A stretch of 64,000 nt of DNA from a virus, in IMG/VR virus record IMGVR_UViG_3300046660_000716, positions 124,001 to 188,000 of that record. One strand, given 5' to 3'. Position 1 is the stretch's first letter, and each line of letters starts with the position of its first letter. Positions 32,868-54,436 of this stretch are shown piece by piece. The notes beneath the pieces are model-generated. The model made no database searches, was not told where the DNA came from, and saw nothing but the letters and a program-made list of their open reading frames with translations. The position numbers were made by a program, and so were the translations under genes.

Positions 32868-33686
32868 TTACAGCGACAGCAGCGCGCCGCGGAACTCGCT
32901 GCGGATGTCTGCCTCCAGAAAGACCTTGACGATGGCCTGGCTCGACTTGACGATCATGTTCATCTGGCTCTCGTCCAGCGAGTACTCGACGCCCTCCAGC
33001 TCGAACTGCTCCACCAGCGAGCGCACGTTGGCGCTCTGGTCGCGGGCGTACTCGGCGGCCTGGGACATCGTCACCACGCACGCGCCCTCGTTCTTCATCG
33101 ACGCGGTGTCCATGTAGGCGCCGGAGTGTGACGGGAAGGTCACCCAGTCGTACGTCACCAGGGCCAGCGGCTTGGTGACCTCGACCAGATCCTGGCCCTG
33201 CACCTTGCGAACGCCGCCCATGCCGCGCATCGAGAAGGCCACGGTGGACTTGTTCTCGACGATCAGGCCGCGCATGTCGCGGCCGCAGGCGGTGGCCGCG
33301 GTCTCCAGCTGGCCGCGCACCACGCCGCCCCGCGCGCCGTCCAGGCCGGTCACGATGTGGCTGATGCGGGTCTGGTCGATGATCATCTGGCGGGCCAGGT
33401 CCGTGGTGAACGGGTGGTTGGCCTCGCCATACATGGTGCGGGTGCGCAGGCGCTCCTGCACTGCCGGCGCCGAGATGGCGTGCGTCAGCACGTCCTCGTT
33501 GTACAGGCGCTTGTTGCGGTTGGGCTTCGTGTCCTGCAGGTGCGACTCGAAGCGCACGATGCCGCCGGAGCCCGTGTCGGAGACGATCTTCGGCTCGGCG
33601 GCCATGATCGTGAGCTCCTGCAGGATCACGCCGATCAGCGGCTCGCCCGCGAACTCGCGCAGCACTGCGATGTTGTGGTTGTGCAT
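32868..33686 (-). CDS. Prohead core protease, T4 gp21-like
   Basis: A 272-residue protein with features of the phage prohead serine protease family. YGEANHPFTTDLARQ corresponds to the GE-x-x-HP segment holding the catalytic histidine; ISHIVTGLDGARGGVVRG to the ISHIV-containing strand; and STVAFSMRGMGGV to the catalytic serine region (SSRG-like). The C-terminal part is acidic and helical (SLVEQFELEGVEYSLDES), as in a self-cleaved scaffold tail. Such proteases mature the prohead by cleaving core and capsid proteins. It is isolated from the capsid operon by 7 kb. The start at 33686 has a GGGA site. Confidence 0.75.
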   Translation of the reverse strand: MHNHNIAVLREFAGEPLIGVILQELTIMAAEPKIVSDTGSGGIVRFESHLQDTKPNRNKRLYNEDVLTHAISAPAVQERLRTRTMYGEANHPFTTDLARQMIIDQTRISHIVTGLDGARGGVVRGQLETAATACGRDMRGLIVENKSTVAFSMRGMGGVRKVQGQDLVEVTKPLALVTYDWVTFPSHSGAYMDTASMKNEGACVVTMSQAAEYARDQSANVRSLVEQFELEGVEYSLDESQMNMIVKSSQAIVKVFLEADIRSEFRGALLSL

Positions 33687-35975: not shown

Positions 35976-37967
35976 ATGTCAGAAGTACTTCCGTTCCTCA
36001 AGACCTACATGGACACGGCGTCCGAGCGCCTGCAGGCCCTGTGGGGCCGGCCGCTCACCGCGTCGGAGCAGGCGCGCCTACTGCACGTCACCGAGACCGG
36101 CTACCGCGACAAGCAGGCCGTCATCGTCAACGCGCACCGCCAGGTCCGCGTCCCGACCAGCCTCGCCAAGGTGGCGGACTGGATGCACAACCGCAAGCCT
36201 CACGCCCCCATCATCACGGGCCACGGCACGATGTTCCGCCCCCACGAGGAGTACCGCTCCACGGTGGGCGACATGGTCTCGTTCCTCCTGGCGCAGCGCA
36301 AGGTGCTCAAGAACCGCATGTTCGACCTGATGCGCGAGGGCCGCCCGCCCGAGGACGCCGAGGTCAAGGCGCTCGACCAGGGCCAGAAGATCTACAAGCT
36401 GCTCGCCGTGTCGTTCTACGGCGCGTACGGCGAGAAGGGCTTCCACTTCTACAACGACGCGCTCGGCCCCGCCGTGACGTTCACGGGCCAGCTCATCATC
36501 GCTTCGACGCTGTACGGCTTCGAGAGCTTCATGATGAACAACCTGTGGCTGCGCAACCCGAACGAGATGGCCCGCCACGTCGCCATCTGCGTCGGCCAGT
36601 GCGAGGGCGGCGACCCCCGCGAGGAGTGGGGCGACCATCCGCAGGTGCCAGAGGTCACGCCGGAAATGGTCGTCGACCGCCTGATCGACGCGTCCGCTCC
36701 GGGCTGGGACTCGCGCACCTGCGCCGAGGGCCTGGTCGTCGGGCTGCCCGAGTCGGCGCTGTGGGCCATCCTCTTCCGGGGCAACCCGTTCCAGTTCCTC
36801 GGCTTCCCGCGCGCCCAGGAGCTGCTGATCACGGCCCTCAACGGCAAGATCAGCGAGGCGGACCCGGGCAAGATGGAGAAGCACCACCCCGAGGGCAAGC
36901 TCGCCATCGAGGCGCTGTGGGAGGGCATGAGCCGCTGGGTCGCCATCCACTGGATGCCCGCCGACATGCCACGCCTCATCGGCGAGATGACTCGCCGCGT
37001 GGTCATCCTGACCGACACCGACTCGACGTTCCTGAACCTGCTGCCCTGGATGGAGTGGCTCCGCGCATCCTTCGAACTGCCGGAGAACGACGAAGACCAG
37101 ATGCTCACCTGCCTGAACGTTATGGTGTACCTGCTGCGCCTCGTCAGCGACTTCCAGATGGGCGAGCTGACCAAGAACCTCGGCGTGCCCGAGGACAAGC
37201 GCCGGATGATCAACTTCAAATCCGAGTTCGTGATCTCTCGCATGGTCTTGACCAACGGCAAGAAGAACTATGTCGCGCTCGAGATGTACCAGGAGGGCGC
37301 GCGCATCGTCGGCGACAAGGTGACGCTGAAGGGCCTGTCCATGAAGAAGACGACCGTGGCGAAGAGCACCGGCGAGTTCCTCAAGGAATCCATCGAGACC
37401 AAGATCCTGCGCAGCAAGGACATCGATCGGGTCGGCGTGCTGCGCGACCTGGTGACCCTAGAGGACACGATCCGCGAGCAGACCCTCGCCGGCGTCCCGG
37501 AGTACTCGTCGCCGGCCACGCTCGGCCGGATGTCCGAGTACGCCGACAAGTACGCCATGCCCGTCGTGCGCGGCGCGCTGGCGTACAATGTGGCCGAGCC
37601 TGAAATGCCCATCCGGGAGGGCGATCGCGTCGCCATGTACAGGACGGTCGTCAACACGGACGTTGGGCGACTCGCGGAGGAGATCGCCAAGCACGAGCCG
37701 GGCACGCGAGGCCACGAGGCCCTGTCAGCGCTGCTCACGGAGTTCTTCGGCGACAACGCCCCGGAGGAGATGTCCAAGAACGGGTTCAACTGGTTCTGCA
37801 TCCCGAAGGACGCGGCAGCCATCCCGGACTACATGCTGCCACTGATCGACGTCGAGAGCGTCCTGCAGGCGAACTCCACGCCGATGCACCCGATCCTGGA
37901 GGCGATCGGCATACGGGTCTCGCGGGCGTCGAGCGTGGACTCCTACTCAAACATCATCCGCTTCTGA
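35976..37967 (+). CDS. B-family DNA polymerase, C-terminal (palm/thumb) part
   Basis: The 663-residue reading begins MSEVLPFLKT after a GAAGGGAAAG site; an upstream in-frame ATG at 35820 is less likely. Motif B is QKIYKLLAVSFYGAYG at 137-152, motif C is DTDS at 347-350 (VVILTDTDSTFLN), and NGKKNYVAL at 427-435 matches the KKRYA-type thumb-side motif. The segment FRPHEEYRSTVGDMVSFLLA resembles sequence that follows motif A in B-family enzymes, but the motif A strand itself (DxxSLYPS) and the 3'-5' exonuclease are absent. They must lie in another gene, giving a split polymerase. There are about 195 residues between motifs B and C, more than usual. Replicates phage DNA. Confidence 0.75.
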   Translation: MSEVLPFLKTYMDTASERLQALWGRPLTASEQARLLHVTETGYRDKQAVIVNAHRQVRVPTSLAKVADWMHNRKPHAPIITGHGTMFRPHEEYRSTVGDMVSFLLAQRKVLKNRMFDLMREGRPPEDAEVKALDQGQKIYKLLAVSFYGAYGEKGFHFYNDALGPAVTFTGQLIIASTLYGFESFMMNNLWLRNPNEMARHVAICVGQCEGGDPREEWGDHPQVPEVTPEMVVDRLIDASAPGWDSRTCAEGLVVGLPESALWAILFRGNPFQFLGFPRAQELLITALNGKISEADPGKMEKHHPEGKLAIEALWEGMSRWVAIHWMPADMPRLIGEMTRRVVILTDTDSTFLNLLPWMEWLRASFELPENDEDQMLTCLNVMVYLLRLVSDFQMGELTKNLGVPEDKRRMINFKSEFVISRMVLTNGKKNYVALEMYQEGARIVGDKVTLKGLSMKKTTVAKSTGEFLKESIETKILRSKDIDRVGVLRDLVTLEDTIREQTLAGVPEYSSPATLGRMSEYADKYAMPVVRGALAYNVAEPEMPIREGDRVAMYRTVVNTDVGRLAEEIAKHEPGTRGHEALSALLTEFFGDNAPEEMSKNGFNWFCIPKDAAAIPDYMLPLIDVESVLQANSTPMHPILEAIGIRVSRASSVDSYSNIIRF

Positions 37968-39066: not shown

Positions 39067-39747
39067 ATGAATAACGCCAAGCTCATAGCAGTAGACACCG
39101 ACGACGTGTTGGTCCACATCACCACCCCGTGGATCCTGCGCGCCGCCGCGCATCCGGACCTCCGCCAGTTGCTGGAGGCCGTGATCGGCAAGCACTACCC
39201 GAACGACGGCGACCTGACGCGCGCCCTGCTGGCGCGCCCGCACCCCTACATCCAGGACTGGCTGACCGCGGCGCACGCGCTCTCGCCTAGCCTGTACCCG
39301 GCGCTGGACATGGTGTACCGCGGCGACCCCGCCTTCTACGACGACCTGCCGCCGACCCAGTACTGCCAGGCCATCCGGGCCGCGATGTCGATGCCGGGCC
39401 GCGTGGCCCACGTGCACGTCATCACGCACAACTTCGACAACGCCGACCCGTGCGCCGAGAGCAAGGAGCGCTGGCTGCGCAGGTGGCTGGGGGAGCGCGA
39501 CCGCGTGACCATCCACCACGTCCAGGCCGGCCAGAAGAAGTCCGACGTGATCGCCGAGCACTGCCCCGAGGCGGACTCGTTCGCGGACGACTCAATGAAG
39601 AACGTCGTCGACATCCTGCTGCACGACGGCTGCAAGCCCCGCGAGATCCTGATCCCGCGCATGGGACACAACGTCATGAGCGAGCAGATCGCGACCCTGG
39701 CGGTGCTGCGCAAGATCAGCATCGTCTACTACGAAAACGCACTCTAG
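39067..39747 (+). CDS. HAD-superfamily phosphatase-like protein
   Basis: A 226-residue protein with HAD phosphatase motifs: motif I VDTDDVL (nucleophile D10, D12), motif II VITHN near residue 120, motif III lysine in QKKSDVI near 158, and motif IV FADDSMKNV near 178. The order and spacing match 5'(3')-deoxyribonucleotidase-type and polynucleotide-phosphatase-type enzymes, with a helical cap between motifs I and II. A role in nucleotide or nucleic-acid end processing is inferred. GAGACCG precedes the ATG, a weak site. Confidence 0.7.
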   Translation: MNNAKLIAVDTDDVLVHITTPWILRAAAHPDLRQLLEAVIGKHYPNDGDLTRALLARPHPYIQDWLTAAHALSPSLYPALDMVYRGDPAFYDDLPPTQYCQAIRAAMSMPGRVAHVHVITHNFDNADPCAESKERWLRRWLGERDRVTIHHVQAGQKKSDVIAEHCPEADSFADDSMKNVVDILLHDGCKPREILIPRMGHNVMSEQIATLAVLRKISIVYYENAL

Positions 39748-42060: not shown

Positions 42061-43587
42061 ATGGAACTCTCCGCACTCAACGTCGACAAGTTCATCGAGG
42101 TGAACCAGCTGCAGCCCGTGACGGCCCTCACCTTCTTCGAGGCGACCGGCGCTCCCACGGAGGGCGGCCTGTTCTCCACGTCCATCTTCGGGCGGGCCGG
42201 GTCCGAGGACCGCCGCCGCCGCTGGGCCTATATCGACCTCAACGGTCGCTTTCTGCATCCGCTCGTCTATAAAACGATCACCCAGTTGAACCGTAAGTTC
42301 CCCGACATCGTGGCCGGCCTGCAGCGCGTGCGGCTCACCCGCTCCGGCGAGATGCAGAACGTCCCCGACGAGGAGAACGAGGGCTGGAGCGGCCTGGACG
42401 CGCTGTACGAGCACTGGACCGAGATCAACTGGGGTGTGGCCGAGCCGGGCTCCCAGCGCGCCGAGCGCGTGGGCATGCTCAACGCCCTGCGCAAGCACCG
42501 CGACATCGCGTTCGTAACGAGGTGGCACGTCATCCCTGCCATGTTCCGCGACGTGGACACCTCCTCGGGCGACCGCATCAAGGAGGTCCCGCCCATCAAC
42601 TCGCTGTACATCCAGATGATGACCAGCGCGCCAACCCGCGTGTCCGGCCTCACCTTCGTCGACGGGACCAGGAAGCGCCGGGCGCAGGAGACGCTGTACG
42701 AGCTGCACCGCTCCGCCCTGGACCTCATCAGCGGCAAGCACGGCCTGATCCAGGACCGCGTGCTCGGCAAGTACACCGACTGGGCAGTGCGCGGCGTGCT
42801 GTCCGGCCCGGCGCTGGCCAAGGCGGCCAAGCCCGGGGAGCAGGAGGTTCCGTTCGGCACCATCGGCATGCCGCTGTACCTGGTGATCAACGCCTTCCAG
42901 CCGTTCGTCATCAAGCGGCTGACCGAGATCTTCCGACTGTACGCCACCGGGCAGGAGCGCATCCTGGTGCGCACCGAGGAGGGCAAGGAGCCGGTGTACT
43001 TCGAGATCCCGGCCGAAGCGAAGGCCCAGCTGGAGCCGGAGCTGTACAAGAAGTGGATCTCCCGCTTCATGCGCAGCCAGGCCAACAGGCTGGACGTGGT
43101 GTCGCTGAAGACAGGCAAGGGCAAGACGATCGCCCTGCCGCTGTACGACGCGGTGCTGGGGCGCCCGACGACCCTGCTGGACCTCTTCTTCATTGTAGCG
43201 CAGGACGTGATCGCGGACAAGTACGTGATGTTCACGCGGTACCCCGTCGAGGACTTCCGGGCGTGCCACTTCGCCAAGCCCGTGGTGCTGACCACGGAGC
43301 GAACGGAGTTGGTCACGATCGGTGCTCACGAGTATAAGCGCTACCCGATCATCACAGGGCGGCCAAGGTGGATTGACAGCTTCCGGATCAACAACAGCTA
43401 CACGAAGGCGATGGGCGCCGACTACGACGGAGACACGCACCGGGTGGTCGGAATCTTCACGCAGGAGGCCAACGCCGAGGCGGAGCATCTCATCCAGCAG
43501 CCGACGAACTACTGCGACGGCCAGGGCAACGCCAGCCGCCCCGTGGCCAACGAGGCCATACTCACGCTGTACGCTCTGACCAAGTAG
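42061..43587 (+). CDS. Phage RNA polymerase beta-prime subunit, N-terminal piece with catalytic motif
   Basis: A 508-residue polypeptide matching the first half of bacterial beta-prime. GGLFSTSIFG near residue 35 matches the zipper-region GGLFD..IFGP segment. LGKYTDWAVRGVLSGPALAKA corresponds to the LLGKRVDYSGRSVI segment (lid/rudder area). WHVIPAMFRDV matches the segment before the clamp. MGADYDGDTHR at 451-461 is the catalytic Mg-binding NADFDGD motif (D454, D456, D458). It ends right after VANEAILTLYALTK, at the known split site of jumbo phage beta-prime. The C-terminal half is probably the 52568 product. Followed by a terminator and an HNH endonuclease gene. Weak ribosome site. Confidence 0.9.
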   Translation: MELSALNVDKFIEVNQLQPVTALTFFEATGAPTEGGLFSTSIFGRAGSEDRRRRWAYIDLNGRFLHPLVYKTITQLNRKFPDIVAGLQRVRLTRSGEMQNVPDEENEGWSGLDALYEHWTEINWGVAEPGSQRAERVGMLNALRKHRDIAFVTRWHVIPAMFRDVDTSSGDRIKEVPPINSLYIQMMTSAPTRVSGLTFVDGTRKRRAQETLYELHRSALDLISGKHGLIQDRVLGKYTDWAVRGVLSGPALAKAAKPGEQEVPFGTIGMPLYLVINAFQPFVIKRLTEIFRLYATGQERILVRTEEGKEPVYFEIPAEAKAQLEPELYKKWISRFMRSQANRLDVVSLKTGKGKTIALPLYDAVLGRPTTLLDLFFIVAQDVIADKYVMFTRYPVEDFRACHFAKPVVLTTERTELVTIGAHEYKRYPIITGRPRWIDSFRINNSYTKAMGADYDGDTHRVVGIFTQEANAEAEHLIQQPTNYCDGQGNASRPVANEAILTLYALTK

Positions 43588-43716: not shown

Positions 43717-43983
43717 ATGACAAAAACGAAGCCAACGACGTTTGTGAACGACCTCGGACCCGTAACGTGTAGCTGCTGTACAGAGCCCCGGCCGAGGGCG
43801 AAAAGCATCAAGATCAACATCGACCGCCTGCACTACAAATGGCTGTGCTCGCGCTGCTTCGCAACACAACTAAGAACACAGAAGGAATCCAATGACGCAA
43901 CAAGAGACGCCACGCCGTCCGGGCCGTCGTCCGATCCTAACGCCCGAGATCGTCGAGTCGTGCAAGGCGCGGCTTGCCGCTGA
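43717..43983 (+). CDS. Small zinc-finger-like protein overlapping the HNH gene
   Basis: An 88-residue frame starting MTKTKPTTFVNDLG. The first 60 residues hold two CxxC pairs (TCSCCTEP and LCSRCFATQ), likely a zinc site. The last 30 residues overlap the HNH gene in another frame and are low-complexity, so the protein may be shorter in practice. Starts 49 bases after the terminator; weak ribosome site. Confidence 0.45.
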   Translation: MTKTKPTTFVNDLGPVTCSCCTEPRPRAKSIKINIDRLHYKWLCSRCFATQLRTQKESNDATRDATPSGPSSDPNARDRRVVQGAACR

Positions 43984-44812
43984 GAGCGCGAACGACACGA
44001 TAGCCTCGCTGGCGCGGGAGTACAACGTTCACTCCACCACGATGCGCATGGCCGTGCGCGGGACAACGTGGGCCAACCGTGACCCCGCCTCCGTGCCCGA
44101 GCCCGAGGGCATGCGACGCATCCCTGGCTACTCTGCCTACTTCGCTGACCGGCGCGGCGACATCTACTCCGCCCGCCAGAGCGACTCGCTGAAGCCGCTG
44201 GCGTTCGGTGCCTCCGGCAAGGGTAGGAAGGTCTTCCTGATCGCGGACGGGGCCGAGAAGGGTCACACCGCGCAGGTCCACGATCTCATCTGCGCCGCGT
44301 GGCACGGCCCGCGTCCGACGGACCGCCACCGCGTCCGCCACATCGACGAGGACCGCACCCACAACTCGCCGGACAATCTGGCCTGGGGCGAGCCCGGCGA
44401 GGTTCCCCGCTCCGGCGGCGGGGCCACAGGGGAGGCGCACGGCCGCTCCAAGCTGACCGACGCTGACGTGCTGCAGGTGCTGGCCTACGCGGCGGCCGGC
44501 GAGCGCCCCGCCGACATCGCGCGGCACAAGCACGTCCACCCGACGACGATCTCGGGCATCGTGGCCCGCCGTCTATGGAGCCACGTCCAGATCCCGGACG
44601 GCGGCCTGCCGGCCGTCGCCCCGCTCCCGCACGCCGACCGGCGCGTGTCCTCCGGTCAGAACCACGGCCGCGCCAAGCTCAATGACGCCGCCGTCGGCCG
44701 TATCCGCCTCAGCCTGCCCCACAAGAGCAACGCGGAGCTCGCCAAGGAGGAGAAGGTCCACCCGACCACCATCGCAAGGATCCGCTCGGGCCGCGGCTGG
44801 AGGGCGCCGTGA
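43892..44812 (+). CDS. HNH endonuclease, probable homing endonuclease
   Basis: A 306-residue protein with AGAAGGA before the ATG. The core VHDLICAAWHG (H130), HRVRHIDEDRTHNSPDNLAW (H150, N158/N162) is a typical HNH nuclease centre. Three similar helix-turn-helix units flank it: residues 15-60 (ILTPEIVESCKARLAA...EYNVHSTTMRMAVRGTTW), 184-228 (KLTDADVLQVLAYAAAGERP) and 258-303 (KLNDAAVGRIRLSLPHKSN, ending STTIARI-like). Such repeats set DNA-site recognition. Homing endonucleases sit next to conserved genes such as RNA polymerase; this one lies directly downstream of beta-prime. Overlaps the next gene by GTGA. Confidence 0.8.
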   Translation: MTQQETPRRPGRRPILTPEIVESCKARLAAESANDTIASLAREYNVHSTTMRMAVRGTTWANRDPASVPEPEGMRRIPGYSAYFADRRGDIYSARQSDSLKPLAFGASGKGRKVFLIADGAEKGHTAQVHDLICAAWHGPRPTDRHRVRHIDEDRTHNSPDNLAWGEPGEVPRSGGGATGEAHGRSKLTDADVLQVLAYAAAGERPADIARHKHVHPTTISGIVARRLWSHVQIPDGGLPAVAPLPHADRRVSSGQNHGRAKLNDAAVGRIRLSLPHKSNAELAKEEKVHPTTIARIRSGRGWRAP

Positions 44813-46290
44813 GCGCCGTTGCGGCGGCGGACTTCGTCGGAACCGAGTTCGCCGGGGAGGTGGACGACAAGGGATATTTCCGGCGGGACTTCTCGCCCGA
44901 GCTGGAGGGTAGCCGGGAGCAGTGGACGGAGTACTGCGACGTGCAAGAAAGCTTCAGGACCCTGGGATACGAGCTCCGGGAACACTACTCAGAACACGAC
45001 TGCCTCACCGGCACCGTCGTCAAACTTAAGGCAGATATGACCATCGACCCATCCTCCATCAACCTGGAAGCCCTGCGCCAGGACGCTTGCAACTCGGCCC
45101 TGCGCAAGATCAACGCCAGCGAGACCCTGACCACCGCACTGATCGCCCGCGCCTGCTACGACGCGAACGGCGAGTACTGCAAGCTGGCCGGCGACGCCGA
45201 CCCGCTGCCGTGGGACCAGTGCTCCGCCTCGACCGAGGAGGGCGTGCTGTTCCGCATCAAGAATCCGGACGCTCCGAACAGCGCCCTGCACGAGAACTGG
45301 CTGAAGTCTAAGGCTGCGGACGGCTGGAAGTGGGGCGAGGTCAAGAACGTCGAGACCAAGGAGCACCCGGCGTTCCTGCCGTACGATAAGCTGCCCGAGA
45401 CCCAGCGCCTCAAGGACGAGCTGTTCACCCGCGTGGTGATGTTCCTGGTGCGCTATTTGGACCCGGCCCAGCTGGCCAACATCCGCTCGACTGGCACCGC
45501 GCCGGTCAGCGAGATCGCCTACGAGGGCGACGGCTTTGACGGGGACCCCGCCCTCGCTTTTAGCCAGGCCGACGCGATCGTAGCATCGGTCGTCGCCGGC
45601 CTGCCCAGCCACCGCGTGCTGACCGTCGGCGATCTCCCGAAGGCGTTCTACGATGCATGCAGCCTCTTCTACACCTCGCTGGGCGACACCGCGCAACTGG
45701 CCTACGTCGGCGGCGTGGTCGACAACTGCACCGCGCGCGTCATGTACGCGCTGGGCGGCGACTACGAGTCGGCCCAGGCCCAGCACGAGGACGTCGTCTC
45801 CATGATGCTGGAGGAGGGCTGGCGCTTCAGCACCGAGCGCGGCATCGACGCGGTCGCCATGGTCAGCCCGTACCTGTGCCCATGGGGCGACCTGCCGCTG
45901 CGCCGCAAGGTCGAGGAGACGATCCTGTTCGACGTCATCAAGGCCCTGAAGCCGGTGCTGGTGGGCCAGAAGGCGCCGGAGCCCGCCTCGATCGCGGGCC
46001 TGACCAACCTGTACAAGGGCGGGCAGGGCGACGCCCGCCAGTCGGACTCGCCCGTGCTCGATCCCGAGTGCAGCCTGTTCCGCAAGCGCTACCGCAAGCT
46101 GAGCGAGCCCGAGGTCGCGCTGCACGACGCGATCAAGGACAAGGCCGACGAGCTGTACCGCCTGTTCATGCAGGTCTCGCCGATCGACAAGGGCCAGGAC
46201 GCCAACCGCGAGCGCGGCGCCAACGTCCAGCTGGGCGTGCGCCACCTGGAGGACGCCGTGTACCGCGTGGTCAAGGGCCTGACGTCGTGA
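44809..46290 (+). CDS. Protein with two RyR-like domains
   Basis: A 493-residue acidic protein (GTG start in a GTGA overlap; an internal ATG at 45037 with AAGG upstream is an alternative). Residues about 150-215 carry a RyR-domain signature: NPDAPNSALHENWLKSKAAD, GWKWGEVKNVETKEHPAFLP and YDKLPETQRLKDELF. A second, weaker copy is at about 315-385 (MMLEEGWRFSTERGIDAVAM, then PWGDLPLRRKVEETILFDVI). A third weaker segment lies before the first. RyR domains are found in bacterial and phage proteins, some linked to conflict systems, and may sense a ligand. The role here is unknown. Confidence 0.65.
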   Translation: MSAVAAADFVGTEFAGEVDDKGYFRRDFSPELEGSREQWTEYCDVQESFRTLGYELREHYSEHDCLTGTVVKLKADMTIDPSSINLEALRQDACNSALRKINASETLTTALIARACYDANGEYCKLAGDADPLPWDQCSASTEEGVLFRIKNPDAPNSALHENWLKSKAADGWKWGEVKNVETKEHPAFLPYDKLPETQRLKDELFTRVVMFLVRYLDPAQLANIRSTGTAPVSEIAYEGDGFDGDPALAFSQADAIVASVVAGLPSHRVLTVGDLPKAFYDACSLFYTSLGDTAQLAYVGGVVDNCTARVMYALGGDYESAQAQHEDVVSMMLEEGWRFSTERGIDAVAMVSPYLCPWGDLPLRRKVEETILFDVIKALKPVLVGQKAPEPASIAGLTNLYKGGQGDARQSDSPVLDPECSLFRKRYRKLSEPEVALHDAIKDKADELYRLFMQVSPIDKGQDANRERGANVQLGVRHLEDAVYRVVKGLTS

Positions 46291-52567: not shown

Positions 52568-54436
52568 CTACCCACCAAAGAGGCTATCGATCACCCCGGG
52601 CTGCGTCTTGCGAAGGATGTCCGTGGAGGTCAGCTGCGCCTTGACGCGCTCGAACGCCAGCGAGTTGGTGACGCTCGGGCTGGACAGGATGGCCGGGGTC
52701 AGCTTCAGGACGGCGTACGGCGGCTCGTCCGGGCCGGTCGAGAAGTCCGGGCGGTTCATGTGGTCGGTGGCGCTGCGCACCTGGGCGCGCAGGATCATCT
52801 CGGCGTGGACCGACGGGGTGCGCAGCTCGGATTTGGTGAGCAGCGCCATCAGGCGGGCGTACGCGTCGTGGTACGTGGCGATCTCCTCGCGCTCGATCAG
52901 GTTGAAGATCGAGTGCAGGGCCTCGGACAGGTCCGTGTTGCTGATCGGGACCTGGAAGACCGAGCTGTCCTGCAGCGGGGACAGGGTGAGCTCGCCGTCG
53001 TCGACCTCGGTGTTCTCCCACGCCTCGTCGTCGAGGTAGATGGGCACCGGGGTCGTAATCTTGATCCGGCTCTGCTTGCCGGCGATCTTGTAGTAGAAGA
53101 TCGTGGTGGAGCGGCGGTCCTCGTCCTCGTCGAGCTCGATGTCGTCCTGCTTGACGTACACGCGGAAGACGGTGCTCTCGGCGATGACCGAGGTGCGCTC
53201 GACGGAGAAGTGCTTGAGGAAGTCCTCCGGCCAGTTGATCTTGGTCGGGCGAGCCTTCAGCAGGTGCTTGGAGGACAGCAGGCGCTGCAGGATCTGCTCG
53301 GAGATGATCAGCACACCGTAGATGCCGGCGTGGATGCTCGCGTTGCTGCGGGCCAGGGCGCCGTAGCAGTGGTGGCAGACGCCGTTCTTGCCCGCGCAGG
53401 TGATCGGCGAGCGCAGGGCGATGTCCTGTTCGACCAGGCCCTCCAGCTCGCCTTCCTCGGCGAGGTGCCACTGCTGGTTGGCGTGGGTGGCGATGTAGCG
53501 ACCCTCCAGGCGAGCCGCGTGGTCCAGGCTCAGGACCTTGGTCTGCACGCCGTGCAGCGTCTCGCAGTCCTCCAGGTCCGGGTCGATGAAGTGGTTGGCG
53601 ACCAGCAGGACCAGCTTGCGCGACAGGTAGCCCGAAGTCTTCACCTGCTTGTAGTTGGTGGTCAGCGCCTTGCGGGCGCCGATCGCGCAGATGTAGAAGT
53701 CTTCGACGCCGCGCATGCCGCGCAGGAAGCTGGTGTCGATCGGCTCCGGCATCAGCTGGCCGTCCATCAGGCCCGGCTTCACGCCGATGCTCACGAACGC
53801 CTGGCGCATCTGGCCGATGTTGACGGCCGAGCCCGAGCGCAGGAGGCGACCCAGCTCGCCGGGCAGCGCCTTCAGGCGCGTGTTCAGCTCTTCGGTGGCC
53901 GCGTCGGCGGCCTTCTCGATGTCGCCCAGCTCGCCCACGGGGGCCTGCCAGCGCAGCAGCTTGCGGATCTCGGGGTCGCGCTCGCCGGCCTCGAAGAGGC
54001 CCTTGATGCTGATGCTCGTGCCTACGCGCCCGACCACGGCGATCGCCAGGTCCTGCACGTAGTTCACGGCGGCGGCGACGGCCATGTTCAGGGTGTCCGG
54101 GTCCAGCACGCGGTACAGCGCCTTGATGGTGACGTCCAGGTGGACTTCCAGGTACTTCGCGTTGATGATCTCACGCACAAAGCGGTCGGCCGGCGGCTGG
54201 ACCTGGGCGACGTGGTACGGGTAGAGCAGCGACAGGCTCGCTAGCGCGCGCCCGACCGACATTTCCTCCGGCCCGTTGCCGCACTCGACGAGGATGGTGC
54301 CGTGGCGGCCGCCGTCCTCTCCCAGCGAGAGCTCGTGCAGCTGCTGCATGACGTCCTCGTAGCTCCCGCCTTCCTGGTCTGCCAGCGCGGCGACGAGGTC
54401 CACGACCTGAATGTCGGCTTCCATCATTTGATCCAT
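52568..54436 (-). CDS. Phage RNA polymerase beta-prime subunit, C-terminal piece
   Basis: A 622-residue polypeptide starting MDQMMEADIQ (AAGGGG site). Matches the second half of beta-prime: SGSAVNIGQMRQAF (residues 201-214) and FYICAIGARKALTTNYKQVK with TSGYLSRKLV (247-275) are the bridge helix and trigger loop region (SGARGSAAQIRQ, STHGARKGL...TANSGYLTRRLV). C291, C347, C354 and C357 (ITCAGKNGVCHHCYG) are the second zinc site, CX6CX2C. GVLIISEQILQRL matches the GVIAAQSIGEPGTQL segment. Ends at GVIDSLFGG, matching the ENVIVGRLIPAGTG end. It partners the 42061 N-terminal piece or its counterpart in the other polymerase. Own TATAAT lies upstream. Confidence 0.9.
   Translation of the reverse strand: MDQMMEADIQVVDLVAALADQEGGSYEDVMQQLHELSLGEDGGRHGTILVECGNGPEEMSVGRALASLSLLYPYHVAQVQPPADRFVREIINAKYLEVHLDVTIKALYRVLDPDTLNMAVAAAVNYVQDLAIAVVGRVGTSISIKGLFEAGERDPEIRKLLRWQAPVGELGDIEKAADAATEELNTRLKALPGELGRLLRSGSAVNIGQMRQAFVSIGVKPGLMDGQLMPEPIDTSFLRGMRGVEDFYICAIGARKALTTNYKQVKTSGYLSRKLVLLVANHFIDPDLEDCETLHGVQTKVLSLDHAARLEGRYIATHANQQWHLAEEGELEGLVEQDIALRSPITCAGKNGVCHHCYGALARSNASIHAGIYGVLIISEQILQRLLSSKHLLKARPTKINWPEDFLKHFSVERTSVIAESTVFRVYVKQDDIELDEDEDRRSTTIFYYKIAGKQSRIKITTPVPIYLDDEAWENTEVDDGELTLSPLQDSSVFQVPISNTDLSEALHSIFNLIEREEIATYHDAYARLMALLTKSELRTPSVHAEMILRAQVRSATDHMNRPDFSTGPDEPPYAVLKLTPAILSSPSVTNSLAFERVKAQLTSTDILRKTQPGVIDSLFGG

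What the first reader, a model, noticed from the sequence alone, without database searches (positions are those of the whole stretch)
35976..37967. B-family DNA polymerase without motif A or exonuclease
Motifs B and C and the thumb motif are present but the DxxSLYPS strand and exonuclease domain are missing. The polymerase must be split inside the palm, unlike most split polymerases that break elsewhere. The 195-residue gap between motifs B and C is also large.
Basis: partly seen in the sequence, partly recalled or inferred. Interest (0 to 1): 0.75.

Follow-up and report, generated by a model that had tools for sequence, protein, structure and literature searches.

The report
Jumbo-phage DNA polymerase in two genes
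This gene encodes the second half of a virus DNA-copying enzyme whose first half, carrying the missing active-site piece and the proofreading domain, lies about 49,000 bases away in the same genome; the arrangement is already known from related giant phages, so this is a new member of a known kind.

Summary
The ORF at 35976-37967 is a 663-residue family-B DNA polymerase fragment with fingers, motif B, motif C (DTDS) and the KKxY thumb motif, but no motif A and no exonuclease. The missing half is in the same 259-kb virus record, outside the window, at G000:C1:108964-110814, about 49 kb upstream. It is 616 residues long, has three exonuclease motifs, and ends 72 residues after the start of motif A (DATALYPS). 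The break falls between T4 gp43 residues ~433 and ~456. The ~200-residue spacing between motifs B and C is a family-wide helical insert. None of this is new in kind. The gene scores far above the cut-off of Pfam PF20286, both halves match PHROG families (2927 and 3011), and published phage AR9 has the same pair. All 19 records known to hold a C-half also hold an N-half, and no fused AR9- or phiKZ-type gene was found. A modest refinement is that motif A sits in the exonuclease-bearing chain in both AR9-type and phiKZ-type phages examined, so the chains should have to meet to form one active site. Verdict: real, understood in kind, low-to-moderate interest.

The parts
35976..37967 (+). C-terminal half of a split divergent family-B DNA polymerase (663 aa; fingers, second part of palm, thumb)
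35976..36221 (+). ~82-residue N-terminal leader without recognised T4 counterpart, predicted helical with a short strand pair; candidate docking element for the N-half (inferred)
36297..36311 (+). fingers RxxxK (R108, K112), aligned with the T4 QRKDWKK segment
36396..36422 (+). motif B KLLAVSFYG
36537..37013 (+). ~160-residue insert between motifs B and C where T4 has ~20 residues; mostly helical in the model
37014..37025 (+). motif C DTDS
37260..37271 (+). KKxY thumb motif (KKNY)
39067..39747 (+). homologue of the AR9 5'(3')-deoxyribonucleotidase (HAD type), which lies next to the AR9 C-half (synteny)
42061..43587 (+). multisubunit RNA polymerase beta' part; an RNAP beta' gene also lies close downstream of the AR9 C-half (synteny)

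Best explanation
The gene encodes the C-terminal half of the phage's own replicative family-B DNA polymerase. The N-terminal half (exonuclease domain plus the first palm strand with motif A) is a separate gene at G000:C1:108964-110814 (locus L008:1465-3315), outside the window. Shown here: both genes exist, each catalytic motif occurs once across the pair, and the pair is conserved and co-inherited in relatives. Inferred: the two chains bind each other and complete the palm in trans, so the metal-binding aspartates come from different polypeptides (motif A from the exonuclease chain, motif C from this chain) and neither chain can polymerise alone. The N-half tail and C-half leader probably help docking. 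The helical insert may add DNA grip, as suggested by Iyer et al. 2021 (PMC7824862).
For: The partner was found with phiR1-37 g170, E 1.4e-60. Its motifs are ADIEVD, NASFD, YGGKD and DATALYPS, and it aligns to RB69 gp43 183-426 through motif A. Both halves match PHROG DNA polymerase families and two adjoining parts of phrog_262. All 19 searched records known to hold a C-half also hold an N-half. No fused AR9- or phiKZ-type gene turned up among the ORFs, while T4-like controls hit both models. D-x-D-x4-YP occurs in 23 of 24 N-halves; in the 24th (LPJP1) the part with motif A lay outside the stretch used. N and C trees agree: Mantel r 0.94, 15 of 21 splits shared. Predicted structures of the C-half and of a relative's N-half hit RB69 gp43 best. 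In that isolated N-half model the stretch around motif A (461-525) has pLDDT below 50 while the rest is mostly confident, as expected if it needs the partner to fold. No other polymerase was found in the record.
Against: Nothing here shows physical association or activity, and no complex could be modelled. The record is classed linear, so completeness is unknown. Covalent joining by trans-splicing is not strictly excluded. Tree agreement is partial and could reflect vertical descent alone.
Confidence: 0.93

Rival explanations
1. The two halves are rejoined covalently, by a split intein or by trans-splicing of split group I intron RNA, into one chain before acting.
For: Apparent group I introns, several with HNH genes, interrupt the N-half in several relatives, one exactly inside motif A (L099), and an Rfam group I intron sits in the phiR1-37 C-half. 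Phage MIJ3 has a PolB interrupted by a putative split intein (PMC6892783).
Against: Here the C-half has its own ATG and ribosome-binding site, and the coding GC3 pattern begins only at that ATG. No intein family matched either half. No Rfam intron lies near either gene, and no match to the group I core string of the relatives lies near the C-half. Both chains carry extra ends rather than abutting ones. Rfam missed most introns in relatives, so this is not decisive.
Confidence: 0.04
2. The C-half is a decayed or inactive remnant, and the phage replicates with a host polymerase or an unrecognised one.
For: Motif A and the exonuclease are absent from this chain.
Against: All other catalytic residues are kept in 27 relatives at 15-29% identity, the reading frame is open with strong codon bias, and the missing part is kept in the same genome and in relatives.
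Confidence: 0.02
3. The split is an assembly or frameshift artefact of one gene.
For: None beyond the gene being partial.
Against: The halves lie 49 kb apart here, 15 kb apart in cultured AR9, and divergently in phiR1-37, with independent starts.
Confidence: 0.01

Closest known systems
Bacillus phage AR9 DNA polymerase pair (RefSeq gp151 polymerase and gp131 exonuclease plus partial catalytic domain; numbered gp152 and gp132 in PMC5312081)
   Same: Same two-gene split, same side of the break for each motif, same B-to-C insert, and similar neighbours (HAD nucleotidase, RNAP beta')
   Different: 27.5% identity in the C-half; the halves are 15 kb apart instead of 49 kb; high-GC genome here
Yersinia phage phiR1-37 g170 (N-half) and g167/g164 (C-half)
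   Same: Same split; its N-half finds the window phage's N-half at 39% identity over the best segment
   Different: The two genes are near neighbours and divergent, and the C-half is interrupted by a group I intron
phiKZ/EL-type divergent family-B polymerase (Pfam PF20286)
   Same: Colinear with this C-half; its partner also carries exonuclease motifs and a D-x-D-x4-YP motif A
   Different: 15-17% identity to the phiKZ-type members aligned; longer B-to-C insert (244-253 in those counted)
T4/RB69 gp43 single-chain family-B polymerase
   Same: Motif order and best fold match for both halves
   Different: One chain; ~20 residues where this family has the ~160-residue insert

Membership tests
Pfam PF20286 Divergent Family B DNA polymerase | Profile score above curated cut-off, colinear match | tested here: met
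   112.1 bits against a cut-off of 25.7; residues 380-701 of the long ORF match profile 380-693
AR9/phiR1-37-type split family-B polymerase | Separate gene with DnaQ-like exonuclease and motif A in the same genome | tested here: met
   L008:1465-3315
AR9/phiR1-37-type split family-B polymerase | Break between motif A and fingers | tested here: met
   N-half model aligns to T4 433, C-half from T4 456; phrog_262 positions 419 and 444
AR9/phiR1-37-type split family-B polymerase | Long insert between motifs B and C | tested here: met
   198 residues here, 183-210 in AR9-type relatives
AR9/phiR1-37-type split family-B polymerase | Heterodimer with polymerase activity | not testable with these tools
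   Needs biochemistry; no complex prediction available
Single-chain family-B polymerase (T4-like) | Exonuclease, motifs A, B and C in one chain | tested here: not met
   No motif A or exonuclease in this ORF, no second polymerase in the record
Split-intein or trans-spliced polymerase | Intein or half-intron features at the break | tested here: inconclusive
   None found, but Rfam sensitivity was low for the introns of relatives
Archaeal split PolB (Methanothermobacter type) | Position of the break | not tested
   Recalled only as a lead; no archaeal split sequence was compared

The most novel reading that the evidence does not exclude
Across both the AR9-type and phiKZ-type jumbo phages, the replicase active site is obligatorily built from two chains, with the proofreading exonuclease protein also supplying the motif A catalytic aspartate. 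What has been described as a polymerase lacking an exonuclease plus a stand-alone exonuclease would then be one enzyme broken through its palm, an ancestral feature of the group.
Probability: 0.8. Interest if true: 0.45.

Novelty: new member of a known kind. Interest (0 to 1): 0.3.

Why it matters
It shows that the 'missing' motif A is not missing, and it gives a clear rule for annotating phiKZ/AR9-type phages: the exonuclease-bearing gene should be treated as a catalytic half of the replicase. If assembly is obligatory, mixing or mutating the two halves is a direct test of how a polymerase palm can be completed in trans.

Tried and rejected
The search for related loci with single sequences gave no relatives; alignment queries worked. 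A pattern search for motif A at DNA level was uninformative. A covalently rejoined chain, a remnant and an assembly artefact were considered and judged unlikely. A stand-alone motif A peptide in L100, L178 and L180 was considered and rejected: the intervening DNA has recurring strings that I read as group I intron core (AATTGCTGG..., GACAATCAGCAGC, GTTCAACGACTATC, ATATAGTCTG). The HMM alignment of the C-half start to T4 495 was out of register; the pairwise alignment to T4 456-487 fits the conserved residues better. Its score for the window protein alone (38) is within the range of shuffles (highest 41), while for AR9 (52 against 46) it is above it, so that edge rests on the family and on phrog_262.

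Full report
What was checked. The window is G000:C1:124001-188000 of a 259,338-base IMG/VR virus record. The gene starts at ATG 35976 rather than at the longest-ORF start 35820: there is a ribosome-binding-like AAGGGAA, codon-position-3 GC of 0.946 inside against 0.635 in the extension, and relatives align from about that point. Pfam puts it in PF20286 (3e-32) and DNA_pol_B (2e-10). It holds the fingers RxxxK, motif B KLLAVSFYG, motif C DTDS and KKNY, and no motif A or exonuclease.

The missing half. tblastn found AR9, PBS1, phiR1-37 and staphylococcal jumbo phages as nearest named relatives, at about 24-28% identity; there is no DNA-level match. phiR1-37 g170, a neighbour of its C-half and annotated B-family DNA polymerase, carries exonuclease motifs and DLSSMYPS. 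Used as a query it finds one place in the window's own record, G000:C1:109075-110691, E 1.4e-60. The ORF there (L008:1465-3315, 616 aa) has ADIEVD, NASFD, YGGKD and DATALYPS, and ends 72 residues after the start of motif A. phmmer aligns it to RB69 gp43 183-426 through motif A.

Where the break lies. The N-half model aligns to T4 gp43 up to residue 433. The C-half aligns from about T4 456 (own 83-116 against T4 456-487), though this local score alone is not above shuffled sequence for the window protein and is for AR9. Independently, the two proteins match phrog_262 (856 positions) at 97-419 and from 444. The break is thus between motif A and the fingers, in the palm. T4 has ~20 residues (598-617) where this family has about 160 between motifs B and C. 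Iyer et al. [quoted passage not shown]

Conservation. Alignment-based scans returned 58 loci for the C-half and 80 for the N-half from IMG/VR; L077-L083 and L111-L163 among them proved to be single-chain T4-like polymerases. Among ORFs of the AR9/phiKZ type none carries both halves; T4 and the T4-like polymerases do, which shows that the test can see a fusion. Of 20 records searched, 19 were known to hold a C-half and one (DT01) was included for its N-half; all 20 have an N-half. In 24 paired genomes 23 N-halves show D-x-D-x4-YP; in the exception the second part of the gene lay outside the stretch used. Profile alignment of the EL and PS119XW N-halves, left out of the training set, places their DIDVEGAYP and DLDIVSTYP on motif A. 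EL's N-half is annotated DNA polymerase, PS119XW's hypothetical. N and C trees agree well but not fully (Mantel r 0.94; 15 of 21 splits).

Structure. The C-half model has mean pLDDT 83 and its best PDB matches are RB69 gp43, with modest TM-scores of about 0.3-0.45. An N-half model of the relative L084 has mean pLDDT 80 but below 50 over 461-525, which includes motif A; its best matches are also RB69 gp43. This fits a strand that needs its partner, though shallow alignments can give the same. No heterodimer could be predicted.

How it probably works. The two proteins bind and complete the palm, placing the motif A aspartate of the exonuclease chain beside the motif C aspartates of this chain. 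The co-presence, complementary motifs and break position are shown; association and activity are inferred from family knowledge. Rejoining by splicing is unlikely on the evidence listed under rivals.

What is known. [quoted passage not shown] phiKZ is said to have a 'split subunit DNA polymerase' (PMC5105663). Kazlauskas et al. 2020 treat PhiKZ as a divergent PolB cluster (PMC7544198). Iyer et al. [quoted passage not shown] The refinement here is that this other protein also carries motif A in both branches. Primary papers on the phiKZ split were not held, so this may already be printed.

Verdict. Observation confirmed, interpretation supported, novelty low: a new, divergent member of a known kind.

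Noticed in passing
L099, L100, L178, L180, L175, L015 (relatives): N-half genes interrupted, several of them near motif A, by apparent group I introns, some with HNH genes; in L099 the interruption splits motif A itself. Core strings recur, but Rfam flagged only the phiR1-37 intron (L005:9098-9497).
   Followed up: partly
L042:3905-7770: C-half gene directly followed by the N-half gene on the same strand (permuted order C then N), with the N-half ATG about 12 bases after the C-half stop.
   Followed up: partly
L008:470-1468 (own record, G000:C1:107969-108967): HNH endonuclease gene (phrog_374, 1.7e-69) whose stop overlaps the ATG of the N-half.
   Followed up: partly
L058 and L064 (IMGVR_UViG_3300025000_000053): Two C-half polymerase genes in one 250-kb contig, the second interrupted into two ORFs.
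   Followed up: no
L053, L057, L059: Motif C reads DSDS instead of DTDS in these C-halves.
   Followed up: no
window 44809-46290 +: 493-aa protein with a RyR domain and a C-terminal Acb2/Tad1 hairpin domain, the latter known from anti-CBASS sponges; function not tested.
   Followed up: no
window 43892-44812 +: HNH homing endonuclease-like gene with a helix-turn-helix, just downstream of the RNA polymerase beta' gene.
   Followed up: no
window 52568-54436 -: Another multisubunit RNA polymerase part (phrog_3015, 1.7e-57).
   Followed up: no
window 32868-33686 -: Prohead protease (Pfam Peptidase_S77, 6.8e-8).
   Followed up: no
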